The notes beneath the pieces were generated by a model. The model was not told the DNA's origin. It made no database searches and was given only the letters and a program-made list of their open reading frames with translations. Of a stretch of 64,000 nucleotides of DNA, positions 7,296 to 31,462 are shown in pieces. Origin of the DNA: Streptomyces sp. NBC_01241 (GTDB lineage: Bacteria > Actinomycetota > Actinomycetes > Streptomycetales > Streptomycetaceae). The stretch is from the NCBI RefSeq assembly GCF_041435435.1, contig NZ_CP108494.1:558001-622000 (forward strand), written 5' to 3'. The position numbers were made by a program, and so were the translations under genes. How positions within the stretch are numbered: position 1 is the stretch's first letter; every line of letters begins with the position of its first letter.

Positions 7296-7838
7296 GTGAC
7301 GGACATGCGAACCGAGGCTGCAGAGCGGGCCGAGCTGGTCTTCTCCCTCTTCGACGCCAACGGCAACGGAGTCCTCGACTCCGAGGACTCCGACCTGATG
7401 ACGGGACGTGTTCTTCAGGCGGCGGTCGCTTCGGACGACGGCGCCAAGGAGGCCCTGCGGGCCTCGTTCCGCCGCTGGTGGACGACGCTGGCCACGGAGC
7501 TGCACGCCAACGGCGACGGTGTGATCAGCGTTGAGGAGTTCCGTCCGTTCGTGCTCGACCCCGAGCGCTTCGGGCCCACGGTCGAGGAGTTCGCCCGGGC
7601 GCTCTCCGCCCTCGGCGACCCGGACGGGGACGGCCTGATCGAGCGTCCGCTCTTCGTGTCGCTGATGACGGCGATCGGCTTCGCCGAGGCGAACATCCAC
7701 GCGCTCTTCGACGCGTTCGGCCCGGACGCCGACGACCGCGTCACCGTGACCACCTGGGCCTCCGGCATCAAGGACTACTACGCGCCGGACCTGGCCGGGA
7801 TCCCGGGTGACCAGTTGGTGGCCGTCCGGGCCGTCTGA
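7296..7838 (+). CDS. EF-hand calcium-binding protein (calerythrin-like)
   Basis: Small (180 aa) cytoplasmic protein with four EF-hand-type segments, the size and arrangement of actinobacterial calerythrin. Canonical loops include DANGNGVLDSED, HANGDGVISVEE and GDPDGDGLIERP; the fourth (GPDADDRVTVTT) is degenerate. The GTG at 7296 was chosen over the upstream open frame because AGGAGA sits just before it; an ATG at 7305 is possible. It is convergent with the methyltransferase gene and separated from it by a strong hairpin. Likely a calcium buffer or sensor; physiological role unknown. Confidence 0.9.
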   Translation: MTDMRTEAAERAELVFSLFDANGNGVLDSEDSDLMTGRVLQAAVASDDGAKEALRASFRRWWTTLATELHANGDGVISVEEFRPFVLDPERFGPTVEEFARALSALGDPDGDGLIERPLFVSLMTAIGFAEANIHALFDAFGPDADDRVTVTTWASGIKDYYAPDLAGIPGDQLVAVRAV

Positions 7839-7848
7839 CACGGCCGGG

Positions 7849-7879
7849 GGGACGGACGGCCGCGGCGGCCGTCCGTCCC
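7849..7879. terminator. Bidirectional terminator hairpin
   Basis: A 13-bp perfect stem (GGGACGGACGGCC / GGCCGTCCGTCCC) with a 5-base loop lies between the convergent EF-hand and methyltransferase genes. Confidence 0.75.
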
Positions 7880-7888
7880 GTGGCGACG

Positions 7889-17860: not shown

Positions 17861-17870
17861 TTGAAGTGCT

Positions 17871-17890
17871 CTCCCGGCTGAAGCCGGGAG
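17871..17890 (-). repeat. IS605 right-end hairpin
   Basis: An 8-bp stem with a TTCA loop (on the minus strand) lies just past the tnpB stop. It is the right-end recognition hairpin and, by analogy with known TnpB systems, part of the omega (right-end) guide RNA; the guide would be the flanking DUF6262 sequence beginning CGGAACACCGACATCC. Confidence 0.75.
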
Positions 17891-17898
17891 ATTCCTGC

Positions 17899-19191
17899 TT
17901 ACCTTGCGGCAGCGGGCTTGACGCGCTTCGCACGTCTGACGACTGCCCTCCCGGCAGCCGGGATGAGCGCGAGGCCCATCCGGTACAGGTGCAAGACGTT
18001 CCGGGCTGCGTTGTGGTCGGCATTGCCCGACCAGCCGCAGTCGGGGTTCTTGCACACGAACACGGCCTGGCTCTCCCGGTTGCCAGGCGTGGTGAAGCCG
18101 CACGCTGAGCAGCGTTGGGAGGTGCCGGGGGCGGGGACCTTGTGCAGGGTGCCGCCGAGCCGGGCGGTCTTGTACGTCAGCATGGTGACCGTGCGGCCCC
18201 ATGCCTCCTTGCTGATGGAGCGGTTCAGCCCGGACTTCTGGGCGACGTTCTTCCCTGGCTCCTCGATGGTTCCCCTGGCCGACTTGACCATGTTCGTGAT
18301 GGTGAGTGCTTCGACCACGACGGTGCCGTATGTGCGGGCGATGGCGGTGGTCGTCTGGTGCTGCCAGTCCAGGGCCCTGCGCTTGGCTTTCGCGCGGAGT
18401 CCTGCGATCCGGTCGTAAGTGCGGTGCAGCCGGCGGCTGGTGCGCTCGCCGGGCTTGCGGTGCCGCTTGCGCTGCGCGGCGCGCCGCTCCAGGTGCAGAA
18501 GCCTGGCCTTCTCCTTCTCCGTCAGCCATTCGCCGTGCTCGTACGTCTCGCCGTCCGAGAGGGCGATGGGCACGGTGACGCCCACGTCGATGCCGACTTC
18601 CGGCCCCTGGTGGGGCTCGGGCTTGACCTCAACGCTCTGGACACGGAAGGCGATGTGCCAGCCGAGCACGTCCTTGACCAGCCGTGCCCCGGTGATCCGG
18701 TTCTCCGCGCCTGCGTGCTTGCCCACGGGCAGGTCTTTGGTCCACCGGAAGCGGACCCGGCCCACCTTGGGAATGTTGGCCATGCCCCAGCGGCGGTGCA
18801 CGCGCACGATGTTCAGGTCCCGGCCCTGAGGGACGTCCACGGACATCACCGTGCGGAACCGGCCCTTGAAGTTCGGGGCGTCGGCGCGGCCCTCCCAGCA
18901 GTTCTTCCACGCCTGGAAGTACGTCTTGAGTACCGCTTGCGCGGCCTGCGCGGGAAGGACAGCAAGGAAGTCGATGTCCTTGCGGGCCTGTCGTACGGCG
19001 GCATCCGCGTGTCCGAGAGTCCGCTTTTCCTTCGGCATCATCTGCCACCAGGCGTGCAGCAGGTTCCACATGGTGCGGGCCGCGTGCGCCTGGCTATCAG
19101 TCCTCAACGCCTCGGCGGGCGACAGCGTAAGCCGGGCACGATGCCCGAACTGCCGCTTGACCATGGTGTCTTGACTCACGATCGAGACCAT
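17899..19191 (-). CDS. tnpB: TnpB RNA-guided endonuclease
   Basis: Full-length TnpB (430 aa), ancestor-like relative of Cas12, which cuts DNA next to a transposon-adjacent motif using an RNA made from the element's right end. The RuvC residues are present: Asp202 (GIDVGV), Glu294 (VVEALTI) and Asp392 (GNADHNAARN). The zinc ribbon has four cysteines (361, 364, 380, 385). The start may be the ATG at 19191 or an internal ATG at 19164 (MVKRQFGH). The gene is divergent from tnpA with 11 bp between them, so promoters overlap. All catalytic residues being intact, it may still be active even though transposition of the enlarged element is doubtful. Confidence 0.93.
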   Translation of the reverse strand: MVSIVSQDTMVKRQFGHRARLTLSPAEALRTDSQAHAARTMWNLLHAWWQMMPKEKRTLGHADAAVRQARKDIDFLAVLPAQAAQAVLKTYFQAWKNCWEGRADAPNFKGRFRTVMSVDVPQGRDLNIVRVHRRWGMANIPKVGRVRFRWTKDLPVGKHAGAENRITGARLVKDVLGWHIAFRVQSVEVKPEPHQGPEVGIDVGVTVPIALSDGETYEHGEWLTEKEKARLLHLERRAAQRKRHRKPGERTSRRLHRTYDRIAGLRAKAKRRALDWQHQTTTAIARTYGTVVVEALTITNMVKSARGTIEEPGKNVAQKSGLNRSISKEAWGRTVTMLTYKTARLGGTLHKVPAPGTSQRCSACGFTTPGNRESQAVFVCKNPDCGWSGNADHNAARNVLHLYRMGLALIPAAGRAVVRRAKRVKPAAAR

Positions 19192-19202
19192 AGCATTGGT
19201 TT

Positions 19203-19631
19203 ATGTCACCGCGCTGGAACCCTCATCCCGATGTCAGAACCGGTCGCCATGTTGTCTACAACCTGCATGTTCATTTGGTTTTTGTCACAAAGTACCGGCG
19301 TGAAGCGTTCACCGACGCCATGCTGACCCGCACCGAAGAGATCATGCGGGAGGTCTGCACGGACTTCGAGGCCGAGCTGAAACAGTTCAACGGCGAACAG
19401 GACCACGTCCACCTGCTCGTGCACTACCCGCCGAAGGTCCAGCTCTCCAAACTGGTCAACTCGCTCAAGGGCGTCAGTTCCCGCAGGCTCCGCCAGGAGT
19501 ACACCACGCATGTCCGCCGGTACCTGTGGGGCGGACACTTCTGGTCCGGCTCCTACTTCGCAGGATCATGCGGCGGCGCACCCCTGACCGTCGTCAAGCA
19601 GTACATCGAAAACCAACAGCGTCCCGTCTGA
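19203..19631 (+). CDS. tnpA: IS200/IS605 Y1 transposase TnpA
   Basis: Single-strand HUH transposase of 142 aa. The metal-binding HUH motif is DHVHLL (His68, His70) and the nucleophile is Tyr134 in VVKQYIENQ. The N-terminal HLVFVTKYRRE and the WGGHFWSGSYF block are typical. It acts as a dimer on hairpins at the element's ends. It is divergently arranged with tnpB, an IS605/IS608-like layout. The coding sequence is intact; its cognate left end is disrupted. Confidence 0.93.
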   Translation: MSPRWNPHPDVRTGRHVVYNLHVHLVFVTKYRREAFTDAMLTRTEEIMREVCTDFEAELKQFNGEQDHVHLLVHYPPKVQLSKLVNSLKGVSSRRLRQEYTTHVRRYLWGGHFWSGSYFAGSCGGAPLTVVKQYIENQQRPV

Positions 19632-19706
19632 CCTCACCCCAAAGGCGCAGAGCACTCCGGCGCTCCGCGCCTCCGGGCCAAGGATGACCTTCACCCCCGC
19701 CCTGAA

Positions 19707-19733
19707 GGACTCTGCTGAGGAATGCGTGATTCG
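19707..19733 (+). repeat. IS1182 left terminal inverted repeat
   Basis: A 27-bp sequence whose exact inverse complement is at 31244-31270. TGAA immediately precedes it at 19703-19706. Confidence 0.92.
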
Positions 19734-19792
19734 AGCAGGGCTGGGTCGTTGGTCCTCCACGATTGTTATGGCGTGAGCGGGAGGGCCGAGAG

Positions 19793-21269
19793 ATGTCACT
19801 GGAGCCACGGGCTGATCATGGGGTGCCGGAGCTGACGGCCCGGGTGGTGCGGGCAGCGTTCCCGAAGGGGACGATGGCGGTGCGGATCCGGGAGGCGTTG
19901 GGCCCGCTGTTTGAGGACGAGGCGTTCGCAGGGGCGTTTGCCGTCCGGGGACGCCCGGCTGTCTCGCCGGGGGCGTTGGCTTTGGTGTCGGTGTTGCAGT
20001 ACGCGGAGGGGCTGACCGATCGGCAGGCCGCTGACCAGGTGCGGGCCCGGATGGACTGGAAGTTTCTGCTCGGCCTGGAGCTGGACGATCCCGGGTTCGA
20101 TGCCTCCGTGCTGAGCCTGTTCCGTTCCCGTCTCATCGAGCACGGACTGGAACAGACGACGCTGGAGCTGGTGCTGGAACGCCTGCGCGGGCTGGACCTG
20201 CTGAAGGCCGGTGGCCGGCAGCGGACCGATTCCACGCACGTGCTGGCGGCGGTGCGGACGCTGAACAGGATGGAGTTCGTCGGCGAGACGCTGCGGGCCG
20301 CACTGGAAGCGCTGGCGGTCGCCGCCCCGGCATGGCTGTCCGGCCTGGTCACACCCGAGTGGGCCGAGCGCTACGGGCCGCGCGTGGACGCCTACCGCTT
20401 CCCCAAGGGCGAAGAGGTCCGTGAACAGTGGTCTGAGCAGGTCGGACGGGACGGGTTCGTCCTGCTGGACGCGGTCTACGCCCCCGCGGCTCCGGACTGG
20501 CTGCGCGAGATCGAGGCGGTGCAGGTCCTGCGGGTCTCCTGGGTCCAGCAGTACCACCGCGACGAGAGGGGGTGCGCTGGCGGGAGGGCAAGGATCTCCC
20601 GCCGGTTCATCACCGGTTGTGCTCGCCCTATGACACCGATGCCCGTTACGGGATCAAGCGCGGCTCGGGCTGGACCGGCTACAAGGCGCATCTGACCGAG
20701 ACCTGCGAGCCGGATGCGCCGCACGTGATCACGCAGGTGGCCACCACCGATGCCGTGGTGGCCGACACGGAGATGACCGAACCGGTCCACCAGGCGCTCG
20801 CGGAACGGGAGTTGCTGCCGCACGTGCATGTCGTGGATGCCGGCTACACCACTGCCGCCCTGTTCCTGTCCGCGACCGAGCGGGGTATGGAACTGCTCGG
20901 CCCGGCCCCGCACGACAGCAGCCGCCAGTCCCGAGAGGATCAGGGCTTCTCCCGCGCCGACTTCACCATCGACTGGGACAACGAGAGCGCCACCTGTCCC
21001 GGCGGGCACCGAAGTTTCGAGTGGTGGGAACAGAAACACCACCGCAACGGCACTCCGGTCCTCAAGGTGTTCTTCTCCGCCGAGCACTGCCGCCCCTGCC
21101 CGAAGCAGACGGCATGCACCAAGCCCCCGTCCGGCCGCCGGGGCAAGGGGCATCACCTTCCTGCCCCGCGAACGGCACGAGGCCCTCGAAGCCGTCCGCC
21201 AGGCCAAGGAGACCGACAATTGGAAGAACCGTTACGCGATCCGGGCCGGGGTCGAAGGAACGATCTCCC
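19793..21269 (+). pseudogene. IS1182 family transposase, 5' part with two frameshifts
   Basis: DDE transposase beginning at ATG 19793 (MSLEPRADHGVPEL). Family features: the N-terminal domain with SPGALALVSVLQYAEGLTDR, the RTDSTHVLAAVRTLNR aspartate region, and a cysteine block ending CTKPPSGRRGKG. The frame shifts near 20565 (GGGGG run, DERG) and back near 21143 (AAGGGGCA), so two compensating single-base changes are needed to read it. The exon ends at ...EGTIS inside a codon; the remainder is at 31060-31238. Pseudogene unless the shifts are sequencing errors. Confidence 0.88.
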
Positions 21270-21973
21270 GTGCGACACGAGGGCGCACGATACGAGTGAA
21301 CACACCGAGTGGAGGTTCGATGTTGAAGGTGTAGTTCCGGGCCAGTGTCCAGGGTCTGTCCCCACCCTGACGTGCGTTGCGGGTAACCGCGGGGTGCGGA
21401 GCTCAGGGGGTCAAGCCCAAGGGTGCCCGTGCCATCCGGGGACCACAGGCGAAGGGGAAGACTGGACGGGCGAACGACGAGTGAACCCCTGGTTGATGTC
21501 TCGTCAGGTATCAGCTCCGGATGATGGATCGCTCTGCCGGAGTCCAGGAACCGGCCGTTGAGAGGCGGCAAGCGGCGACTGTAAGAGGTGAGTTGCAGTC
21601 GTAGGACACCGCTGTTCCCGGGGCATAGGGGGCGCCCACCCCAGTCGGATCTCGTACGTGTGCAACGCGGAAACCCCGTCGGGGTCCGGGGCCGGTTATC
21701 CGGTGCCCGGTTGGCCGACCGCGAGGAGAGCTCAACTCCCCGGCGGGAACAGGAGGACCCAAGAAGCGAACGCCGGCGGCCGAAAGGCAGCGGGAAAGCG
21801 GGACACGATGACCGGCCCCTCCGCCGGTCGTCTCGTATAACCGGCCGGATACGGGCAGCTGCCCGGACCCGAAAGGGTGCTGACGTGGGTCTGGTGGGCC
21901 TGTGAAGTGACGATGACCGAAGGCGATGGAACCGAGGGACAAGTTGGACACCAAGGCGGTGAAGGAGGCCGGG

Positions 21974-22847
21974 ATGGCAGATGCCGCTCCGGCTGTGATC
22001 GCGGTGGTGAACGGACCCGAGGACGATGCCACCGACTGGCTGTCGATCGACTGGCAGCGGGTGGATGACGACGTACGGCGGCTGCGGCAGAGGATCTTCA
22101 CGGCGTCACAGGCAGGGGACCTGAAGAGGGTCCGCAATTTGCAGAAGCTGATGCTCCGTTCCCGCGCCAACGCACTGCATGCGGTGCGGCGGGTGACGGA
22201 GGTCAACGCTGGCCGCGAGACGGCGGGCGTCGACGGCAAGGTGGTGCTGACCGCGCCCGGCAAGGCCGAGGTGGCCGACTGGGTGCAGCACCGCTCCGAG
22301 TCGTGGACGGCCCGGCCCGTCAGACGGGTGTATGTGCCGAAGCCCGACGGGCGTCGGCGTCCGCTCGGCATTCCCGTGATCTTGGACCGCTGTCTTCAGG
22401 CTGTGGTCCTTGGTGCTCTGGAGCCCGAGTGGGAGGCACGGTTCGAGCCGAGGTCCTACGGATTCAGGCCCGGCCGTGGCTGTCATGACGCGATCGAGTC
22501 CATCTTTCTGACCTGCCGGGGCCCCAACCCTGGTCGGCCATGGGTACTTGACGCGGACCTGGCGGCGGCATTCGACCGGATCGACCATGATCACTTGCTC
22601 CGGCGGCTCGGCACGTTTCCCGCGCGGGAACTGGTCGCGCAGTGGCTGCGGGCCGGTGTGGTCGAGGACGGTCGGCTCACCGAGACCGGGGAGGGAACTC
22701 CCCAGGGCGGTGTGATCAGCCCCGCGCTGATGAACGTGGCTCTGCACGGAATGGAGGAGGCCGCCGGGGTGCGGTATCACGCGAGCGGCATCCACGCCGG
22801 GAGCGTGATGCGCAAGAGCCCCGTGCTGGTGAGGTACGCAGACGATC
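21974..22847 (+). pseudogene. Intron 1 reverse transcriptase/maturase, N-terminal part
   Basis: N-terminal half of the intron-encoded protein. It contains the N-terminal RT extension, the fingers with RPLGIPVILDRCLQ, the conserved YGFRPGRGCHDAI, the catalytic LDADLAAAFDRIDHD, GTPQGGVISPALMN, and stops in YADD, the polymerase box. ATG 21974 is preferred (AAGGAGG upstream) over 21926. The coding sequence is cut after GAC GAT C by intron 2 and resumes at about 30076, giving a ~590-aa protein when joined. Confidence 0.9.
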
Positions 22848-23437
22848 GTGCGCCACGAACACAACGGGAGGTTTCGATGTAGACGGAATCTTCCGACGTG
22901 ATGCTGCACCGGTGATGGAGGTGGGCCCTCCGAGACCGCCCACGCAGGGGGAGGTCTCAAACCGCCGCAGGTTGCTCCGGTGAATGAGCCGGGGTGATGA
23001 GCACTGCGGAAAAGGCGCACAAGATGCGTCAGGTGTGAGCCGAGAAGGCGAACGCGAGTGAACCACTGATGAAGTGTCGAAAGCGTATGAACGGTTACCG
23101 AAACCGGGGTCCAGTTGTTGCCCCGGGATGAATCTGGCGGGTTCCTGTATCTCTGGCCAGGTGGTGCCCGGCATAAAGGTGGCGCGAGCTCGGTTCAGGC
23201 GCTGGTGCGGAACGTGGGAACCCCTCGCCGCGATGCTGCCACCGGTCAGGTTGAGGCCGGTTGGCGATAAGGGAGAACCTCAAGCAGCTGAAACTGTGAG
23301 GGGCAGAGTACCGATGCGTGGCAGGGGGACGGATCGCCTCGTAGTAGTGATGATGCCTCTGTAATGGGGGCGGAGCGAAGGGGGCGAGTTGTCCCGATCT
23401 AGTTTGGTGGTCAACCGGAGTTCCCGGGAGGAGCCAG

Positions 23438-24051
23438 GTGAACGGATCAAGGCCGCAGGCCGAGGTCAAGTCGTTTTACATCTCCAAGTTGATGGTGTGG
23501 GAGGCATTTCAGCGAGTCAAGGCCAACAAGGGTGCGCCCGGAACGGATGGCGTGACGATCGAGCGATACGAACAGAACCTTTCGAGGAATCTGTTCAAAT
23601 TGTGGAATCGGATGTCGTCCGGTTCGTATTTCCCTCCGGCGGTGAAGGCCGTGGAGATCCCCAAAGCAGGCGGGAAAGGCATCCGCGTGCTCGGGGTGCC
23701 CACCGTGGACGACCGGATCGCTCAGACGGTGGCCGCGATGTATCTGGAGCGTCGGGTGGAGCCTGTGTTCCACCCGGACTCCTACGGCTACCGGCCCCGG
23801 CGATCGGCGTTGGACGCGGTGGAGCAGTGCCGGCAGCGCTGTTGGCGGAGTGACTGGGTGGTCGATCTCGACATCCGGGCATTCTTCGACAGCGTGGACC
23901 ACGAGCTGATGCTCAAGGCGGTCGAGCGGCATATCGACGCAGACGGGAAATGGGTCCTGCTCTACGTCAAGCGGTGGCTGGTCGCTCCGCTGGCGAAGGC
24001 GGACGGATCGGTGCAGCAACGGGATCGCGGAACTCCCCAGGGGTCGGCGAT
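23438..24051 (+). pseudogene. Intron 2 reverse transcriptase/maturase, part 1 of 3
   Basis: GTG start after GGGAGGAG. Encodes RT fingers and palm: ANKGAPGTDGVTIERYEQNL, GVPTVDDRIAQTVAAMYLE, DSYGYRPRRSALDAVEQC, and the first catalytic aspartate in VVDLDIRAFFDSVDHEL, then RGTPQGSAI. It is cut in the Ile codon of SAISP by the serine-recombinase element. Parts 2 and 3 are 26308-26708 and 29738-30012; joined they form a 429-aa protein without any stop. Confidence 0.9.
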
Positions 24052-25708
24052 CACGCCCCCAACGCAATGGGTAACTCGGGCATGAGTCACCCTCCGTAGC
24101 GTCTTGATCTTGATGCTGGTCGTCGGCGGTGCGCTCACGCACGGGTATGCGGTGCCGGATGGTGATCTTCTCGGGGCCGACGAGGACGTCCTTGACGAGG
24201 AGCCTCAGGACGCGCTGGCGCTCGGGGACCTCGGCTGTCCCAGCGTTCTCGCGGAGCTGGGCGAGGAAGCCTTCGAGGTCGTCAGCGAGCTTGAGGTAGG
24301 CGTCGCGGTCGGCGAGCTGGGCTTCCAGCGCGTCGAGTTGGCCACGCAGGTTACTCTCCCGGGCCCGCAGGCCGGGCATCCGGGCCCGCAGTTCATCGAT
24401 GGTGACGAGCTGTTCCTGGAACGCCTCGATCATGCGCGTGATCGCTGCGGTGGCCTTGGCCAGGGCCAGTTCGAGACGGCTGCGCTGGCGGGTGGCGGGG
24501 TCGGAGGTGCGGGCACGGTCCAGCCGCTTGTCGATCTCGGACCGGATCAGGTGCGGGTCGGCGATCATGCCGATGATGTGGTCCCAGACGACGGTGTCGA
24601 GGTAGTCGGCGCGGACGGGCTTGTTGGTGCAGACCCGGCCGCCCGCGTAGCGGTAGTCGTCGGAGCCCAGGCACCGGTAGTAGTAGATCTTCTTGCCGGA
24701 GGAAGTAGTGGTCGAGGTGCGGTAGTAGCCGTATCCGCAGCTCACACACGCCGACAGCCCCTGAAGCAGGGAGGGGACCTTGCTGTTGCGCGAAGCGAAG
24801 CGCTTGTTGTCGGCGAGCCGCTGGGCGGCGCGCTCGAAGGTGGCCGGGGTGACGAGCGCGGGAACGGGGATGGTGATCCACTCCTCGCGGGGGCGGTCGG
24901 CGGTCTTGACGGCGCGCGGAGTACTGCGGCCCTCCAGGCGGGCCCGGCGGTTCAGGCCCGGGGACTCGTGGAGGATCTGGGTCTTGCCGAAGGCTGCCTG
25001 CCCTTGGTAGGCGGGGTTTTTGAGCATGCCCCAGACCACGCTGCGGTCCCAGCGGGTCTTGCCGGTGCGGGTGGGAGTGCCGCTGTCGGTGAGCCAGCGG
25101 GTCAGGTCCGCGATGGAGACCCCGTCGTCGGTATAGCGGCGGAACAGCTCGACCACCAGCGCCGCCTCGGACTCGACGATCTCGTAGGTGGCCCCGCACT
25201 CGGGGGTCTTGCGCAGGTAGCGGTAGCCGAACGGGGCTCCGCCCAGCACGTTCACCGCCCCCGAGCGGGCCCGGTAGGTCTTCCCGCGCCGGTAGCGTTC
25301 CATCAGCTGGGCCTTCTCGTACTCGGCGAACATGCCCTGGAACTGGACCATCAGCTGGTCCTCGGGGCTGTCGCCGCGTGGGCCGCGGACGAACTCCACC
25401 CGGGTGCCTGCCCGGGCGAACTCCTCGACCAGCAGGGCCTGGTAAGCGAACTTGCGGGCGAGGCGGTCGGGCGCATAGCACAGCACCACATCCACGCCGA
25501 CCTGGGCGACCAGGTCGCGCAACCGCTCCAGCGCGGGCCGCACCAGGGTCGCCCCGGAGTGCCCCTCGTCCTCGAACACCCACTCCTCGGGCAGCTCAAG
25601 ACGCTGTTCTGCGACGTGCGCGCGCAGGGCCGCGGTCTGCGAGCTGATCGTCTGGTCCTTCTTCTGCCGGGCCGAGGACACCCGGGCGTAGATCGCCACG
25701 CTGGTCAT
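23447..25708 (-). CDS. Large serine recombinase
   Basis: Serine recombinase/transposase. The resolvase domain starts at once (AIYARVSSARQKKDQT, nucleophile Ser11), with LCYAPDRLARK and the long E-helix QGMFAEYEKAQLMERYRRGK. Then come the recombinase DNA-binding domain (GGAPFGYRYLRK), a zinc ribbon (LSACVSCGYGYYRT ... CLGSDDYRYAGGRVC) and a long coiled coil (about 395-480). About 552 residues are encoded inside the element; the frame runs through the terminal repeat into the antisense of the interrupted RT gene and stops only at 23447 (753 aa), so the last ~200 residues are accidental. It is the likely mobilising enzyme. Small genes upstream overlap it. Confidence 0.9.
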   Translation of the reverse strand: MTSVAIYARVSSARQKKDQTISSQTAALRAHVAEQRLELPEEWVFEDEGHSGATLVRPALERLRDLVAQVGVDVVLCYAPDRLARKFAYQALLVEEFARAGTRVEFVRGPRGDSPEDQLMVQFQGMFAEYEKAQLMERYRRGKTYRARSGAVNVLGGAPFGYRYLRKTPECGATYEIVESEAALVVELFRRYTDDGVSIADLTRWLTDSGTPTRTGKTRWDRSVVWGMLKNPAYQGQAAFGKTQILHESPGLNRRARLEGRSTPRAVKTADRPREEWITIPVPALVTPATFERAAQRLADNKRFASRNSKVPSLLQGLSACVSCGYGYYRTSTTTSSGKKIYYYRCLGSDDYRYAGGRVCTNKPVRADYLDTVVWDHIIGMIADPHLIRSEIDKRLDRARTSDPATRQRSRLELALAKATAAITRMIEAFQEQLVTIDELRARMPGLRARESNLRGQLDALEAQLADRDAYLKLADDLEGFLAQLRENAGTAEVPERQRVLRLLVKDVLVGPEKITIRHRIPVRERTADDQHQDQDATEGDSCPSYPLRWGRDRRPLGSSAIPLLHRSVRLRQRSDQPPLDVEQDPFPVCVDMPLDRLEHQLVVHAVEECPDVEIDHPVTPPTALPALLHRVQRRSPGPVAVGVRVEHRLHPTLQIHRGHRLSDPVVHGGHPEHADAFPACFGDLHGLHRRREIRTGRHPIPQFEQIPRKVLFVSLDRHAIRSGRTLVGLDSLKCLPHHQLGDVKRLDLGLRP
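24052..24076 (+). repeat. Terminal inverted repeat, left
   Basis: 25 bp, matching the inverse complement of 26281-26305 in 24 positions (mismatch at position 21). The recombinase frame reads through it. Confidence 0.9.
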
Positions 25709-25844
25709 CGCTCACTCCTGCCTGCTCCAGGCGATCCCGTATCCGGGCCCGCCGCTGCGGAACCAACGCCGCATAGGCCGCGGACAAGTCCGCCGCCGCA
25801 TGACGGTCGAAGACCGCCTCCACCTCCACCGGCCGGCCGCTCAC
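25596..25844 (-). CDS. Small accessory protein of the recombinase element
   Basis: An 82-aa frame starting at GTG 25844, overlapping the stop of the upstream gene (GTGA). The first ~50 residues (EAVFDRHAAADLSAAYAALV ...RARIRDRLEQAG) have normal coding character; the rest overlaps the recombinase start region and is arginine-rich, so the functional part may be only the first half. No family recognised. Its position between a DNA-binding protein and the recombinase suggests a role in control or directionality (inference). Confidence 0.5.
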   Translation of the reverse strand: MSGRPVEVEAVFDRHAAADLSAAYAALVPQRRARIRDRLEQAGVSDDQRGDLRPGVLGPAEEGPDDQLADRGPARARRRTAS

Positions 25845-26188
25845 CTGCCCGGCCGCCCCTCCGGGGCACCCCGCTCAAGGAATTCGGCCAGGGCCTGGGC
25901 CACCACCGCGGAGATCGCCCGGTCGCTCTCGTGGGCACGGGCGCGGATCTGTCCTGCCAGCGATTCCGGCAGCTTGACAGTGAACACCACGCTCGACTCG
26001 GGGACTTCGAGATGTCCAGCGGCCATGGCCTGCTCCAGATACCGGCGTGCCTGACGCACCGACACCCCGTACCTACTCGCCAACGTGCGGGCGGCTGCGG
26101 CCACGGGCGCACCCGCCCCGACCAGATCCGCGGCGGCGTTGACCCGCCGGGCGTACTCGACGCTATCGACACGATCACCACGCACCAT
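25841..26188 (-). CDS. Small DNA-binding protein (helix-turn-helix plus ribbon-like)
   Basis: A 115-aa protein, first gene of the recombinase operon. Its first half resembles a helix-turn-helix (AAARTLASRYGVSVRQARRY); the second half (VVFTVKLPESLAGQIRARAH) has the look of a ribbon-helix-helix domain. It could be a repressor or a recombination accessory factor. The ATG at 26188 lies directly at the edge of a 7-bp inverted repeat (26189-26214), which is a good candidate for an autoregulatory operator. Confidence 0.65.
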   Translation of the reverse strand: MVRGDRVDSVEYARRVNAAADLVGAGAPVAAAARTLASRYGVSVRQARRYLEQAMAAGHLEVPESSVVFTVKLPESLAGQIRARAHESDRAISAVVAQALAEFLERGAPEGRPGR

Positions 26189-26214
26189 GTCACAAACCTA
26201 CTACCCATTGTGAC
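26189..26214 (-). promoter_or_regulatory. Candidate operator of the recombinase operon
   Basis: Perfect inverted repeat GTCACAA - 12 bp - TTGTGAC immediately upstream of the start codon at 26188. The spacer contains a TAGTAG that could serve as a -10 element. Placement suggests repression by the adjacent DNA-binding protein. Confidence 0.5.
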
Positions 26215-26280
26215 GCTCCTTACCCTCCGCGCGAGGAAGGAGTTCCAAGCGCCGGTAGCCGAGCGTCACCTCGAAGCAGA

Positions 26281-26305
26281 AGTTGCCCATTGCGTTGGGG
26301 GCGTG
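26281..26305 (-). repeat. Terminal inverted repeat, right
   Basis: Partner of 24052-24076; followed directly by the duplicated AT. Confidence 0.9.
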
Positions 26306-26307
26306 AT

Positions 26308-26708
26308 TTCGCCCGTGCTGGCGAATCTGTATCTCCACTACGCGTTCGATCTGTGGCTGGCTCGGGAGTTCCCGCAGGTCACCTTCGAACGGTACTGCGA
26401 TGATGCGGTGATTCACTGCGGCAGTGAGAGGCAGGCCCGCCACGTGCGGGACGCTCTCACGCAGCGATTGGCGCAGGTCGGTTTGGAATTGCATCCGGAC
26501 AAGACGCGCATCGTCTATTGCAAGGACGCTGATCGGCGAGGCTCGTACGAGCACACGGCGTTCACGTTTCTTGGATACACGTTCCGACCCAGACTGGCCA
26601 AGAACCGGTACGGGAAGCACTTTGTGAGCTTCCTGCCCGCGGTCAGCAAGGCGGCGATCAAGGCGATGGGCAAGGTAATGCGTTCCTGGCGCATCGCCCA
26701 ACGCAGTG
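26308..26708 (+). pseudogene. Intron 2 reverse transcriptase/maturase, part 2 of 3
   Basis: Continues from 24051 in frame: SPVLANLYLHYAFDLWLARE, then the RT active-site box FERYCDDAVIHCGS (a YCDD variant of YxDD), DKTRIVYCKDAD and FTFLGYTFRPR. The coding is interrupted in the Asp codon of QRSDKSL by the IS5-like element (duplication CAGTG). Confidence 0.9.
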
Positions 26709-26769
26709 AGGTCTTCTCGGCAACGTGACAGTTGCGGAGTGTGACGGGGTGCGGGTGCCCGCTCGCGGC

Positions 26770-27165
26770 CTAGTTCTGCGGTGCCAGGGTGCGCAGGACG
26801 TCGAACTCGTTGCCCTCGGGGTCTGCCATGACCACCCAGTTTCGGTCTGAGCCCTGGCCCACATCAGTCTTGGTGGCGCCGAGGCCGAGCAATCTGGTCA
26901 CCTCGTCCTCGGTGCTACCGTCGATCGGGCTGACGTCGAGGTGAAGCCGGTTCTTCACGGTCTTGCCCTCGGGCACCTGGATGAACAGCAGGGTGGGCGG
27001 CATCTGGCGGGCCCGAACATCCTCGACGGTCGGCACCCAGGAGCCGATCTCGACCTTGCCCTCGCTCCGGTCGATCACCTTGAAGTCCAGGACCTCGCAC
27101 CAAAAGGCCGCGAGCCTCTCCGGATCGTGGCAGTCAACGGCCAACTCGGTGAACCTACTTGTCAT
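26770..27165 (-). CDS. VOC (glyoxalase/bleomycin-resistance-like) family protein
   Basis: A 131-aa single-domain protein of the vicinal-oxygen-chelate superfamily. It has the paired beta-alpha-beta-beta-beta pattern: FTELAVDCHDPERLAAFWCE at the start, LLFIQVPEGKTVKNRLHLDV in the middle and NWVVMADPEGNEFDVL at the end. Possible metal ligands are His13 and His in RLHLDV; similar proteins bind drugs or act as small enzymes. The ATG follows GGGAGAG. It lies between the left end and the transposase of an insertion sequence, so it is cargo, perhaps a resistance function. Confidence 0.85.
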   Translation of the reverse strand: MTSRFTELAVDCHDPERLAAFWCEVLDFKVIDRSEGKVEIGSWVPTVEDVRARQMPPTLLFIQVPEGKTVKNRLHLDVSPIDGSTEDEVTRLLGLGATKTDVGQGSDRNWVVMADPEGNEFDVLRTLAPQN

Positions 27166-27281
27166 GACTCTCCCAGATAGTGCGGACAGGGCTCAGAGTA
27201 TGCCGCCCGTCCGACAGATCCGAGATCTTCCTGACTAGGGTGCGTTTCAGAAGTGGATCTCGATGTGTCAAGATCCACTTC

Positions 27282-28156
27282 ATGGGGAGGCATGATCTGA
27301 CGAATGCACAGTGGGCGAAGCTGGAGCCGCTGCTCCCGGTCGGAAGCAAGCCTGGACGGCCGCCGGTCCGCACCAAGCGACAGTTGATAGACGGCATACG
27401 CTGGCGCACTCGCGCCGGTGCTCCCTGGCGGGACGTGCCTGAGCGGTATGGCCCGTGGGAGACGGTGTACGGACTGTTCCGGCGTTGGCAGCGGGACGGC
27501 ACCTGGCATCGCATCTTCGAGCAACTGCAGGCCCGGGCCGACGCCGAGGGGTTGATCACCTGGGACGTCTCGGTGGACTCGACTATCGCCCGTGCCCACC
27601 AGCATGCGGCGGGTGCCCGCAAAAAGGGGATCTGCAGGTCGAGCCGCCGGGTGGCGTCTTCACCGAGCCTGACGACCATGGGCTCGGACGTTCCCGGGGC
27701 GGCCTGACGACCAAGCTCCACCTGGCGGTCGAGCAGGCGCAGAAGCCGATGTCACTGGTGATCACGGCCGGGCAGCGCGGTGACTCCCCGCAGTTCCAGG
27801 TGGTCCTGGACCGTATCCGGGTGCCCAGGCTCGGGCCGGGCCGGCCTCGCACCCGGCCGGACAAGGTTCGTGCCGACAAGGCGTACGGCTCCCGCGCGAA
27901 CCGCGCCTACCTGCGCAAGCGCGGTATCCGCTGCACGATCCCGGAGAAGCGTGACCAGATCGCCAACCGCAAGAAACGCGGCCCTCACGGCGGTCGGCCG
28001 CCGAAGTTCGACAAGGCCGACTACAAAGAGCGCCACGCGGTGGAGTGCGGAATCAACCGCCTCAAGCGGCACCGCGCGGTCGCCACGAGATACGACAAGC
28101 TCGCCGTCCGCTACGAAGCGACCGTTCTGGTCGCAGCTATCAACGAGTGGCTGTGA
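27282..28156 (+). CDS. IS5 family (IS427 group) transposase, read by -1 frameshift
   Basis: Two overlapping frames make one ~290-aa DDE transposase. The first (from ATG 27282, [20 protein letters not shown]) encodes the DNA-binding part and the first aspartate ([19 protein letters not shown]). The second begins around the C-AAA-AAG slippery site near 27619 and continues [51 protein letters not shown] and the final [20 protein letters not shown] programmed -1 shift is the normal expression route in this IS group. Apparently intact. Confidence 0.88.
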
Positions 28157-28186
28157 CCAGCATCCTCATGCTCGTCCTGGTGGCTT

Positions 28187-28630
28187 TCACTGGTCTTCGG
28201 TGTCGAATGCCTGGGCCACGGCGAGGCTGTCCTCGTAGATATGGTGCCGGGTGACCAAGCCGTCTTCGAAGGTGAGGTGCATAGCAAACCGCGCGCGATA
28301 CGCACGTCCGGTGGACCGAGCGGTCTGGCGAATCTCGCCGATCACGACTGCGTCGTTTCCGTCGATGAGGATGCGCTCAACCTCAGTCGCCACCTGCTCC
28401 GGCACGTGGTGCTCGGCAAGTTCGCGATAGTGGGCGGCCGCGTCGGCCCGGGTGGACCGATGACGGATCCAGGGCGTGGCAGTACGACCGTGCTCGGCCT
28501 CCGGCCAGTTCAGCTTCCAATCGCCCCGCTCGGCGTACAGCTCGGCGATGCGCTCGGGGTCGCCCTCACCAATCCTGCGCAGTAACTCCTCAACCGCGGT
28601 CCGTGTGTTCGTAGATGTGGCTACGCACAT
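28187..28630 (-). CDS. SnoaL-like / NTF2-fold protein
   Basis: A 147-aa protein of the nuclear-transport-factor-2/SnoaL-like superfamily: one helix pair (TAVEELLRRIGEGDPERIAE), LYAERGDWKLNWPEAEHG, then strands ending in FAMHLTFEDGLVTRHHIYED. Such folds serve as cyclases, isomerases or binding proteins; catalytic residues cannot be assigned. ATG 28630 follows GGAGGGG. It lies within the inverted repeats of an IS427-like element, hence a passenger gene with no functional partner in view. Confidence 0.82.
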   Translation of the reverse strand: MCVATSTNTRTAVEELLRRIGEGDPERIAELYAERGDWKLNWPEAEHGRTATPWIRHRSTRADAAAHYRELAEHHVPEQVATEVERILIDGNDAVVIGEIRQTARSTGRAYRARFAMHLTFEDGLVTRHHIYEDSLAVAQAFDTEDQ

Positions 28631-28865
28631 GATTGGCCCCTCCGTATGGTCCGCGTCCTGCTCACGCGGCGAGATCACCAACCTAGCCCGCACAGTCCGG
28701 GCGAGACGATTACCTCCTGAGTAAGGCAACGCATCATAAAGATCCACTTTCGAAACGCACCCTAGGGACATCAGACGGGCTTGACCCGGCATCAGATACG
28801 CGAGAAGCCCGTGGTAGGAACAGGTCTGCGGAGAACAGGTTCCGGGGTCCGAGAGGCTTCACGCG

Positions 28866-29690
28866 TTGACCAGTGTCACCTACACCGGCGTGCTCGATGT
28901 CAGCCGGGCCACTGCTGAGGCCCTCGCGAAGCTGCTGCTCGAACACCGTGAGCGTCTCGGGACCCGCAAGGGCACCCGCGCCCTGGGTCCGTTCAAACAG
29001 AGCGTGTTGATCCTGCGCTGGTTCCTGGACGGTGCCCGGCTGACTCAACTTGCCCGCGACAACCGGATCTCCGTCCCGACGGCCTACCGCTACCTCCACG
29101 AAGGGCTGACCGTGCTCGCCGACCAAGCCCCGGACCTGTCCACCGCACTGGAGCGCGCGGCCGCAGCCGGCTTTACACACCTCAACCTCGACGGCACCGT
29201 CATCCGTACCGATCGCGTCGCCGCCCCCGGCCCGAACAAGGCCGACCTGTGGTGGTCGGGCAAGCACAAGCACCACGGCGGCAACGTCCAGGTCATTTCC
29301 GCACCCGACGGCTGGCCGCTCTGGGTCTCGCCGGTCCGGCCCGGCCGCGAGCACGACACCACCTGCGCCCGTACCCACGGCCTGATCGCCGCCCTGAACC
29401 GGCTCGCCGACACCCTCGACATCCCCACCCTGACCGACCTCGGCTACCAGAACGCCGGGGCCGGCCTCCGCCACCCGGTCAAAAAGCCCAAGGGCGGCGA
29501 ACTCACCGATGACGCCAAGGCGTTCAACTCCGTCATCCGAGGCGTCCACGGCGTGGCCGAACGCGCCAACGCCCTGCTCAAGGTGACCTTCAAGGCTCTG
29601 CGCAGGGTCAGCCTCGACCCCAAGGCGATCACCCGGATCACCCGCGCTGCCCTCGTCCTGCTCCAGATGGAACACGGCCGCACCATCTGA
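28866..29690 (+). CDS. IS5-like transposase (HTH plus DDE_4 type)
   Basis: Intact 274-aa transposase of the 'transposase family protein' group. A helix-turn-helix (LTQLARDNRISVPTAYRYLH) precedes the DDE endonuclease core with NLDGTVIRTDRVAAPG, YSGKH-equivalent WWSGKHKHHGGNVQV, LTDLGYQNAGAGLRHPVKKP and the C-terminal glutamate block VAERANALLKVTFKALRRV. The start is a TTG at 28866 without a strong ribosome-binding site. It should mobilise the 26709-29732 element. Confidence 0.85.
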   Translation: MTSVTYTGVLDVSRATAEALAKLLLEHRERLGTRKGTRALGPFKQSVLILRWFLDGARLTQLARDNRISVPTAYRYLHEGLTVLADQAPDLSTALERAAAAGFTHLNLDGTVIRTDRVAAPGPNKADLWWSGKHKHHGGNVQVISAPDGWPLWVSPVRPGREHDTTCARTHGLIAALNRLADTLDIPTLTDLGYQNAGAGLRHPVKKPKGGELTDDAKAFNSVIRGVHGVAERANALLKVTFKALRRVSLDPKAITRITRAALVLLQMEHGRTI

Positions 29691-29737
29691 ACGAAGATCA
29701 CGAACCGTCACGAGACGTTACCGAGAAGGGCTCAGTG

Positions 29738-30012
29738 ACAAGTCGCTGATGGACCTTGCGCGGATGTTCAACAACATCGTGCAGGGATGGATCAACTATT
29801 ACGGGCGATTCTACAAGTCCATGTTGTATCCCCTCCTCCGGCGCATCAACAGAATGTTGGTGGGCTGGGCCTGCCAGAAGTACAAACGACTGCGCCGCCG
29901 GGAGAAACGCGCGGGAGAACTACTGGCAGGCGCGGCCCGCCGGTTTCCCAACATGTTCGCCCACTGGCGGTTCGGCCTCAAGCCTGACGGCTGGGCAATG
30001 GGAGCCGTGTGA
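29738..30012 (+). pseudogene. Intron 2 reverse transcriptase/maturase, part 3 of 3
   Basis: C-terminal maturase segment: KSLMDLARMFNNIVQGWINY, YYGRFYKSMLYPLLRRINRM, and a basic tail, ending MGAV with the TGA inside domain V. Typical of group II intron maturase (thumb/X domain). No HNH endonuclease follows, unlike intron 1. Confidence 0.9.
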
Positions 30013-30075
30013 GCCGAGAGGCTCCCGCACGGTTCTGCGAGCGGCGGCGGGTGCGATTCCCGCCGCCGACTCTCC

Positions 30076-30974
30076 TGGTGGCGATGTGCCACAGCCGTGA
30101 GCAGGCCGAGGAGGTCAAGCAGCGGCTCGCCGCCTGGCTGGAACCCAGAGGGCTCGCCTTCAACGAGGACAAGACGCGCATCGTGCGCCTCACCGAGGGC
30201 TTCTGCTTCCTGGGCTTCCACGTCCGGCTGTATCGCAACCGGAAACTGCTGATCAAACCCAGCAAGGCGTCCGTGAAACGGATCCGGAAACGGCTCGCCG
30301 CCGAGATGTGGGACCTGCGCGGGTCCAATGCCGAGGCGGTGATCAGGACCCTCAACCCGATCATCCGGGGCTGGTCCGCCTACTTCCGGATCGGGGTGTC
30401 CAGCAGGGTCTTCAGCTCGCTGGACTTCTACGTGTGGCAGCTCGCCTACAAGTGGGCCAAGCACGAACACGCGAACAAGCCAAAGGACTGGATCGTGCAC
30501 CGCTACTTCGGAGAGTTCAACCCCCGCCGGGGTGACCGGTGGGTCTTCGGAGACCGCGGCAGCGGACGGTTCCTCACCAAGTTCGCGTGGACGAAGATCG
30601 TCCGGCACCAGCTCGTCAAGTTCGGGGCGTCTCCGGATGACCCGGCACTGACCGAGTACTGGGCCCGGCGGCGGCGCAAGGACGTGATCCCGCTGATCGA
30701 CAAGGCCGACTGGCACCTGCTCAACCGCCAGAACGGCCGCTGTCCGCTCTGCGGGGCTCTTCTGCTGCACGCTGACCATCCGCCGTCCGGCCCCATCGCG
30801 TGGGAGCAGTGGCTGCGGGCGACCCGCAAAGCGATCAGCCGCAAGGCGATCGTCATCACCGGGCCGGGCACACCGGACGCCCCACCCGCCCAACTCCTGC
30901 ACGCCCACTGCCGACAACGGCTTGTCACCGCCACCGGCAAGGGGCCCAGCCTTCTGCCCGCCCGTGAGCCATAG
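30076..30974 (+). pseudogene. Intron 1 reverse transcriptase/maturase, C-terminal part with HNH domain
   Basis: Resumes right after YADD: LVAMCHSREQAEEVKQRLAA, then NEDKTRIVRLTEGFCFLGFH and the maturase domain (TLNPIIRGWSAYFRIGVSS). The C-terminus is an HNH-type endonuclease domain: NGRCPLCGALLLHADHPPSG and LLHAHCRQR, which in related introns nicks the target DNA. The stop at 30974 is ten bases before domain V. As the two halves are on different sides of intron 2, expression needs splicing of that intron. Confidence 0.88.
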
Positions 30975-31059
30975 GGCCTGCTTGAGCCGTGTGCGGGGCC
31001 AACCCGCCCGCACGGTTCTCAGGGGGCGGCGGCGCGGCAACGCGCCGCCGCTACCCGAC

Positions 31060-31238
31060 AGGCCGTCCGTGTCACCGGCCTGCGCCGTACCCGCTACCGC
31101 GATCTACCCGCGACCCGCCTCGGCCACGTCTTCGCCGCCACCGCACTCAACCTCATCCGCATCAACCGATGGCTGACCGGCACCCCACTCGGCGGCACCC
31201 GCACCTCCCACCTCGAAGCCCTGATGCTCGCGGCCTGA
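31060..31238 (+). pseudogene. IS1182 family transposase, 3' exon
   Basis: The last 59 codons of the transposase: QAVRVTGLRRTRYRDLPATR, FAATALNLIRINRWLTG, ending ALMLAA. It joins EGTIS at 21269 across the group II intron. The right inverted repeat follows six bases after the stop. Confidence 0.9.
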
Positions 31239-31243
31239 CCACC

Positions 31244-31270
31244 CGAATCACGCATTCCTCAGCAGAGTCC
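31244..31270 (-). repeat. IS1182 right terminal inverted repeat
   Basis: Perfect 27-bp match to the inverse of 19707-19733, followed by the duplicated TGAA at 31271-31274. Confidence 0.92.
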
Positions 31271-31300
31271 TGAAGGGCGGAGCACTGGCCAAGATCAGAG

Positions 31301-31462
31301 GTAGAGGAAGTCGAGTGAGACGTCGGCGCTCTGCGCCAGGCCGCGGAAGGTGATGGCCTCGCCGCGGCGGATCATCTCCCGTAGCCTCTTCTCGGCGCGA
31401 GCCTGTGCGGCGGCGCTCTTGCGGGCGGCGGCCTGGCGGAGGTTGTCGGGGTTGCGGCGCAT
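31301..31462 (-). pseudogene. DUF6262 protein, N-terminal part (split gene)
   Basis: ATG 31462 with GGGAGG upstream. Encodes MRRNPDNLRQAAARKSAAAQ, a basic helical start, and an HTH-like ITFRGLAQSADVSLDFLY; exactly 54 codons to the insertion of the IS605 element. The C-terminal part is at 17600-17860. The upstream frame on the same strand ends at 31468, six bases before this start, indicating an operon. Confidence 0.82.

What the first reader, a model, noticed from the sequence alone, without database searches (positions are those of the whole stretch)
17861..31300. Six-layer nest of mobile elements that can be peeled by reading frame
Order, outside in: DUF6262 gene; IS200/IS605 element; IS1182 element in its left-end hairpin; group II intron in the IS1182 transposase; second group II intron in the first intron's RT; in the second intron's RT a serine-recombinase transposon and, separately, an IS5-like element; inside that an IS427-like element. 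The joins DFLY|RNTDI, EGTIS|QAVR, YADD|L, SAI|SPVL and QRS|DKSL each give an open frame of the right family, and target duplications (TGAA, AT, CAGTG, CTAG) fit. This gives a relative order of arrival.
Basis: partly seen in the sequence, partly recalled or inferred. Interest (0 to 1): 0.93.

Follow-up and report, generated by a model that had tools for sequence, protein, structure and literature searches.

The report
Transposon that targets group II introns
A Streptomyces chromosome holds mobile elements nested six deep, and one element in the nest belongs to a family of small transposons that, in bacteria of at least three phyla, sit at the same codon of the reverse-transcriptase gene of other mobile elements (group II introns), so it likely uses that gene motif as its landing site and would switch the intron's enzyme off while it sits there.

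Summary
The nest is real and its coordinates are right. The joins hold: DUF6262 (aligned to an intact relative, residues 54|55), IS1182 transposase (493|494 of an intact copy), intron-1 RT and intron-2 RT (contiguous profile positions). Partial stages lie elsewhere in the same genome (empty intron-1 and intron-2 sites), and an empty IS427 site lies in a related genome. Nesting does not give the time of arrival at this locus: the IS5-like+IS427 composite exists a second time, and all six close IS605 copies found carry IS1182 in the same hairpin.

The main result goes beyond the finding. The "serine-recombinase transposon" (24052-26305) belongs to a family whose insertions split group II intron RT genes inside GTPQG-x-x|ISP, at the same codon, in about five RT types, in both orientations, in Actinomycetota, Pseudomonadota, Bacteroidota and a "Deltaproteobacteria" MAG. 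In the supported main clade 26 of 33 distinct recombinases are in RTs, 4 are not, 3 are unclear. Three of seven off-target sites closely resemble the RT site. The recombinase frame has no stop inside the element in 25 of 25 copies tested. I infer a site-specific hyperparasite of group II introns; five full-text searches and passages of one recombinase survey showed no earlier description. Nested introns and IS1182 in hairpins are known.

The parts
31301..31462 (-). DUF6262 gene, 5' part (54 aa)
   Evidence: Pfam PF19776 positions 2-51, E 2.7e-5, below its cut-off; aligns to residues 1-54 of intact DUF6262 in L154
17600..17860 (-). DUF6262 gene, 3' part
   Evidence: aligns to residues 55-110 of the same intact protein; no Pfam DUF6262 match on its own
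17861..31300 (.). IS200/IS605 element (with all inserts)
   Evidence: same 5' end at six places, flank TCTAC|, no target duplication
17899..19191 (-). TnpB
   Evidence: NF040570 guided_TnpB 205.8 bits, cut-off 100
19203..19631 (+). TnpA, Y1 transposase
   Evidence: NF033573 159.8 bits; PF01797
19697..19706 (+). left half of IS605 hairpin, CCGCCC + TGAA
   Evidence: sequence
31271..31280 (+). right half of the hairpin, TGAA + GGGCGG
   Evidence: sequence
19707..31270 (+). IS1182-family element in the hairpin loop; 27-bp inverted ends 19707-19733 and 31244-31270
   Evidence: NF033551 pieces 8-240, 245-412, 454-488; intact copy L005
21270..31059 (+). group II intron 1, in the IS1182 transposase gene
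   Evidence: Rfam RF02012 at 21349, RF00029 at 30982-31059; empty sites L004, L005
21926..22847 (+). intron-1 RT, N part (up to YADD)
   Evidence: TIGR04416 3-215
30075..30974 (+). intron-1 RT, C part with GIIM domain
   Evidence: TIGR04416 217-352, PF08388; uninterrupted 609-codon RT1 frame in L016
22848..30075 (+). group II intron 2, inserted at YADD of the intron-1 RT (+-1 nt)
   Evidence: Rfam RF01999 at 22917-23034, RF00029 at 30000-30076; empty site in L002/L025
23438..24051 (+). intron-2 RT, N part, ends in GTPQGSA
   Evidence: TIGR04416 3-186
24052..26305 (.). serine-recombinase transposon, 2,254 bp, inverted ends CACGCCCCCAACGCAATGGG, AT on both sides
   Evidence: eight further places in the genome
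24079..25708 (-). large serine recombinase (543 aa inside the element; its frame runs on through 24052 into the RT)
   Evidence: PF00239, PF07508, PF13408; no stop inside the element
25841..26188 (-). 115-aa protein, predicted HTH plus ribbon-helix-helix
   Evidence: RHH_1 above cut-off in relatives L122 and L124, not in the window copy or L120; invariant S-x-RQA-x-RY in 10 rows
26306..26708 (+). intron-2 RT, middle part (ISPVLANLYL...)
   Evidence: TIGR04416 186-298
26709..29732 (.). IS5-like element (DDE_Tnp_4) with glyoxalase-like passenger; TSD CAGTG 26704-26708 / 29733-29737
26770..27165 (-). glyoxalase-like (VOC) passenger gene
   Evidence: PF18029 94.5 bits; same unit in relatives
28866..29690 (+). 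IS5-like transposase
   Evidence: PF13359 101.9 bits; NF033581 69.3 bits, below cut-off 140
27239..28761 (+). IS427-like element in the IS5-like element; TSD CTAG 27235-27238 / 28762-28765
   Evidence: repeat I4; NF033580 above cut-off in both frames; empty site in L139
28187..28630 (-). SnoaL-like ORF inside the IS427-like element
   Evidence: PF12680 54.9 bits
29738..30012 (+). intron-2 RT, C part (maturase domain)
   Evidence: TIGR04416 306-352, PF08388

Best explanation
The stretch is a six-deep nest of mobile elements in a Streptomyces DUF6262 gene, and one element in it is a 2.25-kb transposon of a serine-recombinase family whose members sit at one codon of group II intron reverse-transcriptase genes in bacteria of at least three phyla, so the recombinase likely recognises the DNA of that conserved RT motif as its attachment site and likely inactivates the intron's RT while inserted. 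Shown: the position inside GTPQG-x-x|ISP; junctions that differ from the empty site by the element plus two bases in the window's genome; both orientations; about five RT types; off-target sites, three of seven of which closely resemble the motif; an element made of one recombinase gene plus one small gene; no stop codon inside the element. Inferred: integration by serine-recombinase strand exchange between the element's joined inverted ends (as a circle) and the RT motif; loss of RT function while inserted; restoration on excision; a role of the small HTH/RHH protein in excision or control. For the rest of the nest (inferred from position and copies): IS1182 inserts into the 4-nt loop of the IS605 end hairpin, intron 1 homes into IS1182-type transposase genes, and intron 2 entered the RT of intron 1.
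For: Own genome: 9 places with the element; 7 of 9 in RTs at the same codon (two of these 7 at the two ends of contig C1), L010 in the other orientation; 2 of 9 elsewhere. Elsewhere (RT queries against DNA outside the element only): of 19 loci with both element ends set (3 of them own), 11 have RT matches on both sides that run to within three residues of RT1 266|267, 4 (L042, L047, L048, L049) have one side weak or read by eye, 4 (L032 = L053, L054, L072) have none; add plasmid loci. Tree of 53 distinct recombinases (17 identical and 13 short rows dropped): main clade, SH-aLRT 99, 33 rows (2 own): 26 RT, 4 other, 3 unclear; a second clade of 10 rows: 4 RT (own subclade, 96), 6 other; 10 outer rows: none RT; the RT label needs 9 changes against 17.4 in shuffles, 6 if unclear rows are left out. 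Of 6 plasmid loci fetched after the tree, L159, L160, L161 (about 50-60% identical) have RT N and C halves on the two sides, L158 (93%) has RT N halves on both sides, L162 and L163 (38-39%) have no RT. Site matrix from 17 RT sites; of 7 non-RT sites, L032, L012 and L011 scored as high as only 2, 3 and 11 of 40,000 background positions. RT types A-E and both orientations. No stop inside the element, 25 of 25.
Against: A recombinase 98% identical to the window's (L117) is not in an RT, and 4 of 33 main-clade rows are off-target. Four of the seven off-target sites resemble the RT site only weakly (L117 130, L046 415, L054 465, L072 1,033 of 40,000). The two junction bases are often not equal left and right (for example CT/AT in L041, GT/CT in L051), which a strict 2-bp core does not predict. 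Several RT labels rest on one readable side (L033, L036, L045, L055, L056, L060, L125). Two of the 17 matrix sites (L006, L010) are the same DNA, which raises their leave-one-out scores. Own-genome copies in intron 1 may be copies of one event that moved with the intron or its IS, and an element could flip in place, so orientation alone does not prove separate insertions. The family is sparse (matches in 7 of 392 genus genomes). No recombination was tested, and no excised circle was seen.
Confidence: 0.85

Rival explanations
1. An ordinary nest: mobile elements pile up in neutral DNA by chance, and the serine-recombinase element is a promiscuous transposon that happens to sit in an RT here.
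For: Mobile DNA is a common target; in this genome 2 of 9 copies are outside RTs, and L117 (98% identical) is too.
Against: The same codon is hit in different RT types and in both orientations across phyla; the DNA of three of seven off-target sites resembles the RT motif closely; the RT label is clustered on the tree.
Confidence: 0.07
2. The RT-element pairs descend from few ancient insertions and spread together by intron retrotransposition or horizontal transfer, so the specificity is an illusion of common descent.
For: Intron 1 is about 99.8-99.9% identical between most own-genome copies, so some intron+element pairs probably multiplied as a unit; L042/L119 and L044/L057 look like such pairs.
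Against: Five RT types by their motifs, with both orientations in types A, B and C, need at least five insertions among the 17 listed loci, eight if no element flipped in place; the window genome has empty and filled copies of the same intron (L016, L017 against L006, L010); elements that differ by one base from the window's sit in RT1 and in an RT that is 71-75% identical to it in DNA (L006, L010, L007).
Confidence: 0.07
3. Domesticated switch: the element is a developmental or conditional excision element (like the fdxN/XisF element) that the host uses to control the retroelement.
For: The recombinase's second-best NCBIfam profile is XisF (92.6 bits against a cut-off of 375); a two-base junction would allow precise excision.
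Against: Multicopy, scattered, off-target insertions in different orientations: selfish behaviour. No excision data. Recombinase far below the XisF cut-off.
Confidence: 0.05

Closest known systems
[quoted passage not shown]
   Same: A mobile element specialised on a conserved sequence of other mobile elements, with accidental off-target insertion at a look-alike sequence (ureC); described as a safe harbour (PMC8269217, passages seen)
   Different: Transposase of another type (IS1111 group, by the cited title in that passage); target is a transposon end, not a protein-coding catalytic motif
Nested group II introns (twintrons) of Methanosarcina acetivorans and Thermosynechococcus elongatus; a Trichodesmium twintron is known to me from a search listing only (PMC4649490)
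   Same: Group II introns inserted in other group II introns, up to five nested introns in Methanosarcina (PMC4424553 and PMC2882425, passages seen)
   Different: There the nest is introns only, as far as the passages say; T. elongatus inner introns sit between two start codons, here intron 2 sits at YADD, and its relatives in other Streptomyces sit at other sites
IS1272/TnSha1 (IS1182 family)
   Same: IS1182-family elements insert into hairpins (PMC4923244, passages seen); here all six copies found sit in one hairpin
   Different: TnSha1 deletes part of the target stem and makes no duplication; here a 4-bp direct repeat flanks four of six copies (window, L002, L004, L019), while L005 and L018 have TGAA on one side and TTCA on the other
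Site-specific large serine recombinases (Durrant et al. 2022 survey, PMC10083194, passages seen)
   Same: Distantly related recombinases that share one target gene family
   Different: The terms 'reverse transcriptase' and 'group II' do not occur in that main text; here the element is about 2.25 kb with two genes
CcrB (SCCmec) and XisF (fdxN element)
   Same: Nearest NCBIfam profiles (99.2 and 92.6 bits); serine recombinases
   Different: Far below the curated cut-offs (900 and 375); different target and element size (the latter recalled)

Membership tests
Large serine recombinase element | N-terminal resolvase domain, Recombinase domain, zinc ribbon | tested here: met
   PF00239, PF07508, PF13408 all above cut-off
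Large serine recombinase element | junctions share a two-base core and no longer target duplication | tested here: inconclusive
   AT/AT in the window and at L006, L007, L008, L009, L010, L013; equal cores in some relatives (L042, L043, L044, L047), unequal in L034, L041, L048, L049, L051, L052, L118, L120
Large serine recombinase element | attP/attB recombination by the enzyme, directionality factor for excision | not testable with these tools
   needs an assay; no excised circle seen
IS607 (serine transposase) | N-terminal DNA-binding domain before the catalytic domain (recalled) | tested here: not met
   catalytic domain is at residues 4-151 of 543; NF033518 35 bits against a cut-off of 110
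Group II intron (intron 1 and intron 2) | RT/maturase ORF plus domain V/VI RNA downstream, 5' GTGYG | tested here: met
   5' ends GTGCG at 21270 and 22848
Group II intron (intron 1 and intron 2) | splicing and retrohoming | not testable with these tools
   empty sites exist; both RTs are interrupted here
IS200/IS605 | Y1 transposase, fixed tetranucleotide on one side, no duplication, end hairpins | tested here: met
   six of six flanks TCTAC|; RE hairpin -18.3 kcal/mol with RNA parameters
IS1182 | IS1182 transposase profile; insertion in palindromes | tested here: met
   pieces match NF033551, none alone reaches the cut-off of 270; six of six copies in one hairpin
IS5 family, IS427-like | IS5 transposase in two frames, CTAG duplication | tested here: met
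   NF033580 127.6 and 132.9 bits, cut-off 110; CTAG on both sides
IS5 family, outer element | curated IS5 profile above cut-off | tested here: not met
   NF033581 69.3 against 140, although DDE_Tnp_4 is clear; called IS5-like only
DUF6262 | alignment to an intact member across the join | tested here: met

The most novel reading that the evidence does not exclude
A lineage of two-gene serine-recombinase transposons has adopted the catalytic-core motif GTPQG-x-x-ISP of group II intron reverse transcriptases as its dedicated, reversible attachment site across bacterial phyla. It is a hyperparasite that switches retroelements off by insertion and can restore them by exact excision, with a recombinase whose reading frame has no stop of its own and is finished by the victim's DNA.
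Probability: 0.45. Interest if true: 0.86.

Novelty: new variant of a known kind. Interest (0 to 1): 0.72.

Why it matters
Group II introns are multicopy retroelements and the likely ancestors of spliceosomal introns; what limits them in bacteria is an open question. A transposon family that lands in their RT motif would be a natural check on them and gives a testable system of a parasite of a parasite. Practically, the RT motif is a conserved candidate attB that many bacteria carry, so these compact recombinases could be site-specific integration tools for unusual laboratory hosts. The nest itself, with partial stages in the same genome, is a clear case of how far nesting can and cannot date insertions.

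Tried and rejected
Intron 2 as a YADD specialist: rejected as a family rule. 72 of 392 genus genomes have a match to the intron-2 query at E <= 0.001, many of them weak. Thirty loci were read (L087 is the window itself); none of the other 29 shows YADD in the 60 bases before the intron start, which had to be extrapolated and is uncertain in several. Examples of their sites look like IS630-type and IS3-type transposase motifs; those names are my reading of the flanking peptides, no call named them. IS1182 in two orientations as proof of two insertions: not claimed, because recombination between its inverted ends could flip it; the case for repeated hits rests on the divergence contrast (IS605 parts 8.94% against IS1182 parts 0.68% for window/L004), which gene conversion could also give. 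The second copy of the IS5-like composite as proof of transposition as a unit: the copy is there, but its two flanks (CAGTG / CAATC) are not an exact duplication, so the mechanism stays inferred. The own-genome list scored 40 of 471 first-look candidates and may be incomplete; it also holds a 60-bp (83%) and a 317-bp (77%) match to IS605 that I did not examine. Phage origin of the recombinase: viral contigs gave no relative in two scans. Class search: 3 foreign loci, which by their flanks look like the insertions already held as L050, L051 and L052, so no new evidence. Rows dropped before counts: 17 identical and 13 short recombinases; of 37 plasmid records 27 were read around the recombinase, 10 were not. 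RT labels were assigned by me (60 was run before, 72 after the tree and agrees); RT types A-E by eye. 'LSR', 'RDF', the IS427 name and general IS lore are recalled.


Full report
1. The window is C1:558001-622000 of a 3-contig, 8.98-Mb genome; the genus Streptomyces is inferred from named near relatives. In it, the DUF6262 gene is split by an IS200/IS605 element at 17861-31300. The two gene pieces align to residues 1-54 and 55-110 of an intact DUF6262 protein from Streptomyces sp. NBC_01727. The IS605 element has no target duplication and lies 3' of TCTAC, as do its other copies whose 5' end was read (six of six places).

2. IS1182 lies in the loop of the IS605 end hairpin: CCGCCC-TGAA-[IS1182]-TGAA-GGGCGG. 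Its transposase is split by intron 1. An intact 551-aa copy at L005 aligns 1-493 to the 5' side and 494-551 to the 3' side. The window copy also has two frameshifts. Intron 1 has its RT split at YADD by intron 2. The RT1 pieces match positions 3-215 and 217-352 of TIGR04416, and an uninterrupted 609-codon RT1 frame exists in L016. Intron 2's RT is in three pieces (3-186, 186-298, 306-352), cut by the serine-recombinase element and by the IS5-like element. Rfam sees both 5' domains and both domain V/VI in nested order.

3. Stages and what they do to the chronology. In the same genome, L002/L025 is IS605+IS1182+intron 1 with an empty intron-2 site, and L004 and L005 are IS605+IS1182 with an empty intron-1 site. 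In another Streptomyces (L139) the IS5-like element with its glyoxalase-like gene has no IS427. None of 14 foreign loci examined carries IS427; 12 of 14 have transposase sequence beyond the left half, and in 6 of them it is nearly full length. But the window's composite, IS427 included, exists a second time at C1:7901634 (3,031 bp), and all six close IS605 copies found carry IS1182. So who hit whom is clear; the order of arrival at this locus is not.

4. IS1182 and the hairpin. Between copies the IS605 parts differ by 0.27-8.94% while the IS1182 parts differ by 0.28-1.75%. That is expected if IS1182 entered an already dispersed hairpin more than once, or if conversion evened it out. The flanking four bases are a direct repeat in four of six copies; in L005 and L018 they are TGAA on one side and TTCA on the other. 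Hairpin targeting is known for the IS1182 family (PMC4923244 passages). Intron-1 copies elsewhere in the genome lie beside exon sequence that matches the window's in only 32, 24 and 24 of 40 bases, counted without gaps (seven of seven copies read), near matches of about 67% to this IS1182. I take that as another IS1182-type transposase. Intron 1 itself is 99.8-99.9% identical in most copies.

5. The serine-recombinase element. It is 2,254 bp (24052-26305) with inverted ends. It encodes a recombinase with resolvase, recombinase and zinc-ribbon domains and a 115-aa protein whose relatives L122 and L124 carry a ribbon-helix-helix domain above cut-off. Nine places in the genome have it. Seven lie in group II RTs at the codon after GTPQGG-V or GTPQGS-A: the window's RT2, RT1 copies, and in L007 an RT 71-75% identical in DNA. 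One of the seven (L010) is in the opposite orientation. Two (L011, L012) are elsewhere.

6. The family. A genome scan gave 36 loci. Genus, phylum and class searches gave hits in 7 of 392, 8 of 396 and 4 of 394 genomes at their thresholds, the own genome included each time. A plasmid search gave 37 records, 27 of them read. With RT queries searched only against DNA outside the element, 11 of 19 loci with both ends set have matches on both sides to within three residues of RT1 266|267; 4 more have one side weak or read by eye; 4 have none. The wider set agrees. RT-split cases include Streptomyces, Actinacidiphila, Rhodococcus, Kibdelosporangium, Nocardia, Frankia, Parafrankia, Embleya, Mesorhizobium, Rhizobium, Bradyrhizobium, Stutzerimonas, Pseudomonas, Cupriavidus, Chitinophaga (contig ends, one side per contig), a Flavobacteriales MAG and a 'Deltaproteobacteria' MAG. 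On several plasmids the deposited annotation itself names the RT or maturase fragments and the CopG-type gene (for example).

7. Tree. Of 53 distinct recombinases, the main clade (SH-aLRT 99) has 33 rows, two of them own: 26 RT, 4 other, 3 unclear. A second clade of 10 has 4 RT rows (Flavobacteriales, Cupriavidus, Stutzerimonas, P. putida) and 6 other; the 10 outer rows are all other (quick method, no bootstrap, midpoint root). RT targeting thus marks one deep clade and one more subclade; whether it arose once or twice is open. After the tree I read six more plasmid loci: L159, L160 and L161 have RT halves on the two sides; L162 and L163 (38-39%) have no RT; L158 has RT N-halves on both sides, as if two insertions had recombined.

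8. Site recognition. From 17 RT sites (20 bases each side of the core; L006 and L010 are the same DNA) leave-one-out scores were 15.0 to 40.8, while the top 1 in 10,000 of background was 7.8 (background maximum 39.4; its pool holds RT genes). The seven non-RT sites, each in its better orientation, scored as high as 2 (L032), 3 (L012), 11 (L011), 130 (L117), 415 (L046), 465 (L054) and 1,033 (L072) of 40,000 background positions. So three off-targets are look-alikes of the RT motif, and the others resemble it weakly. About five RT types are hit, judged by eye from the peptides after the break, with both orientations in three.

9. A recombinase gene without a stop. In the 25 copies for which I set both a start and an element end, the recombinase frame runs through the element end in the same phase. 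In 23 it stops 8 to 1,544 bases beyond; in two (L046, L158) no stop was reached in the DNA held. In five alphaproteobacterial copies the annotated recombinase likewise ends past the point where the RT resumes (with 60 and 108). Whether the target-encoded tail matters is unknown.

10. Literature. Nested introns are known (PMC4424553, PMC2882425; passages), as are elements specialised on other elements (IS5075 in Tn21 ends, PMC8269217, passages). Five full-text searches and passages of a survey of large serine recombinases (PMC10083194) gave nothing on recombinases that target group II intron RTs. Only open-licence papers were searchable.

11. Verdict. The larger result is a transposon family whose usual address, in its main clade, is the RT motif of group II introns. 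I file it as a new variant of site-specific large-serine-recombinase elements, with the enzymatic steps untested.

Noticed in passing
window 26709-27234 and 28766-29732; L139-L150: The IS5-like element carries a glyoxalase-like gene as passenger; left end plus this gene recurs at 92-98% in 12 foreign loci read (L139-L150), with a nearly full transposase half adjoining in 6 of them. Matches to the gene without the IS end also exist.
   Followed up: partly
window 28187-28630: A SnoaL-like ORF lies between the IS427-like transposase and the right inverted end; possible second passenger gene.
   Followed up: no
L065 (same recombinase as L036, L039) 3927-8670, Streptomyces luteolifulvus: The recombinase match ends at residue about 498 and an intron-2-like element (88% DNA identity) follows: apparently an intron inside a recombinase element beside an RT fragment.
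   Followed up: partly
L158, Streptomyces sp. NBC_01340 plasmid: The element is flanked by two RT N-halves in opposite orientation, as after recombination between two RT-sited copies.
   Followed up: no
L008 and L013 (C1:8853343 and C1:1311 of 8856951): Two copies of the recombinase element, each in an intron-1 RT, lie within 4 kb of the two ends of contig C1.
   Followed up: no
L034, L041, L048, L049, L051, L052, L118, L120: The two junction bases vary between insertions and differ between left and right side in these, which is unexplained for a serine recombinase with a fixed core.
   Followed up: partly
L117, Streptomyces sp. NBC_00842 plasmid: Off-target copy of a 98% identical recombinase next to a gene annotated DUF4158.
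   Followed up: no
window 55304-55394: tRNA-Asp call of 91 bases, long for that tRNA.
   Followed up: no
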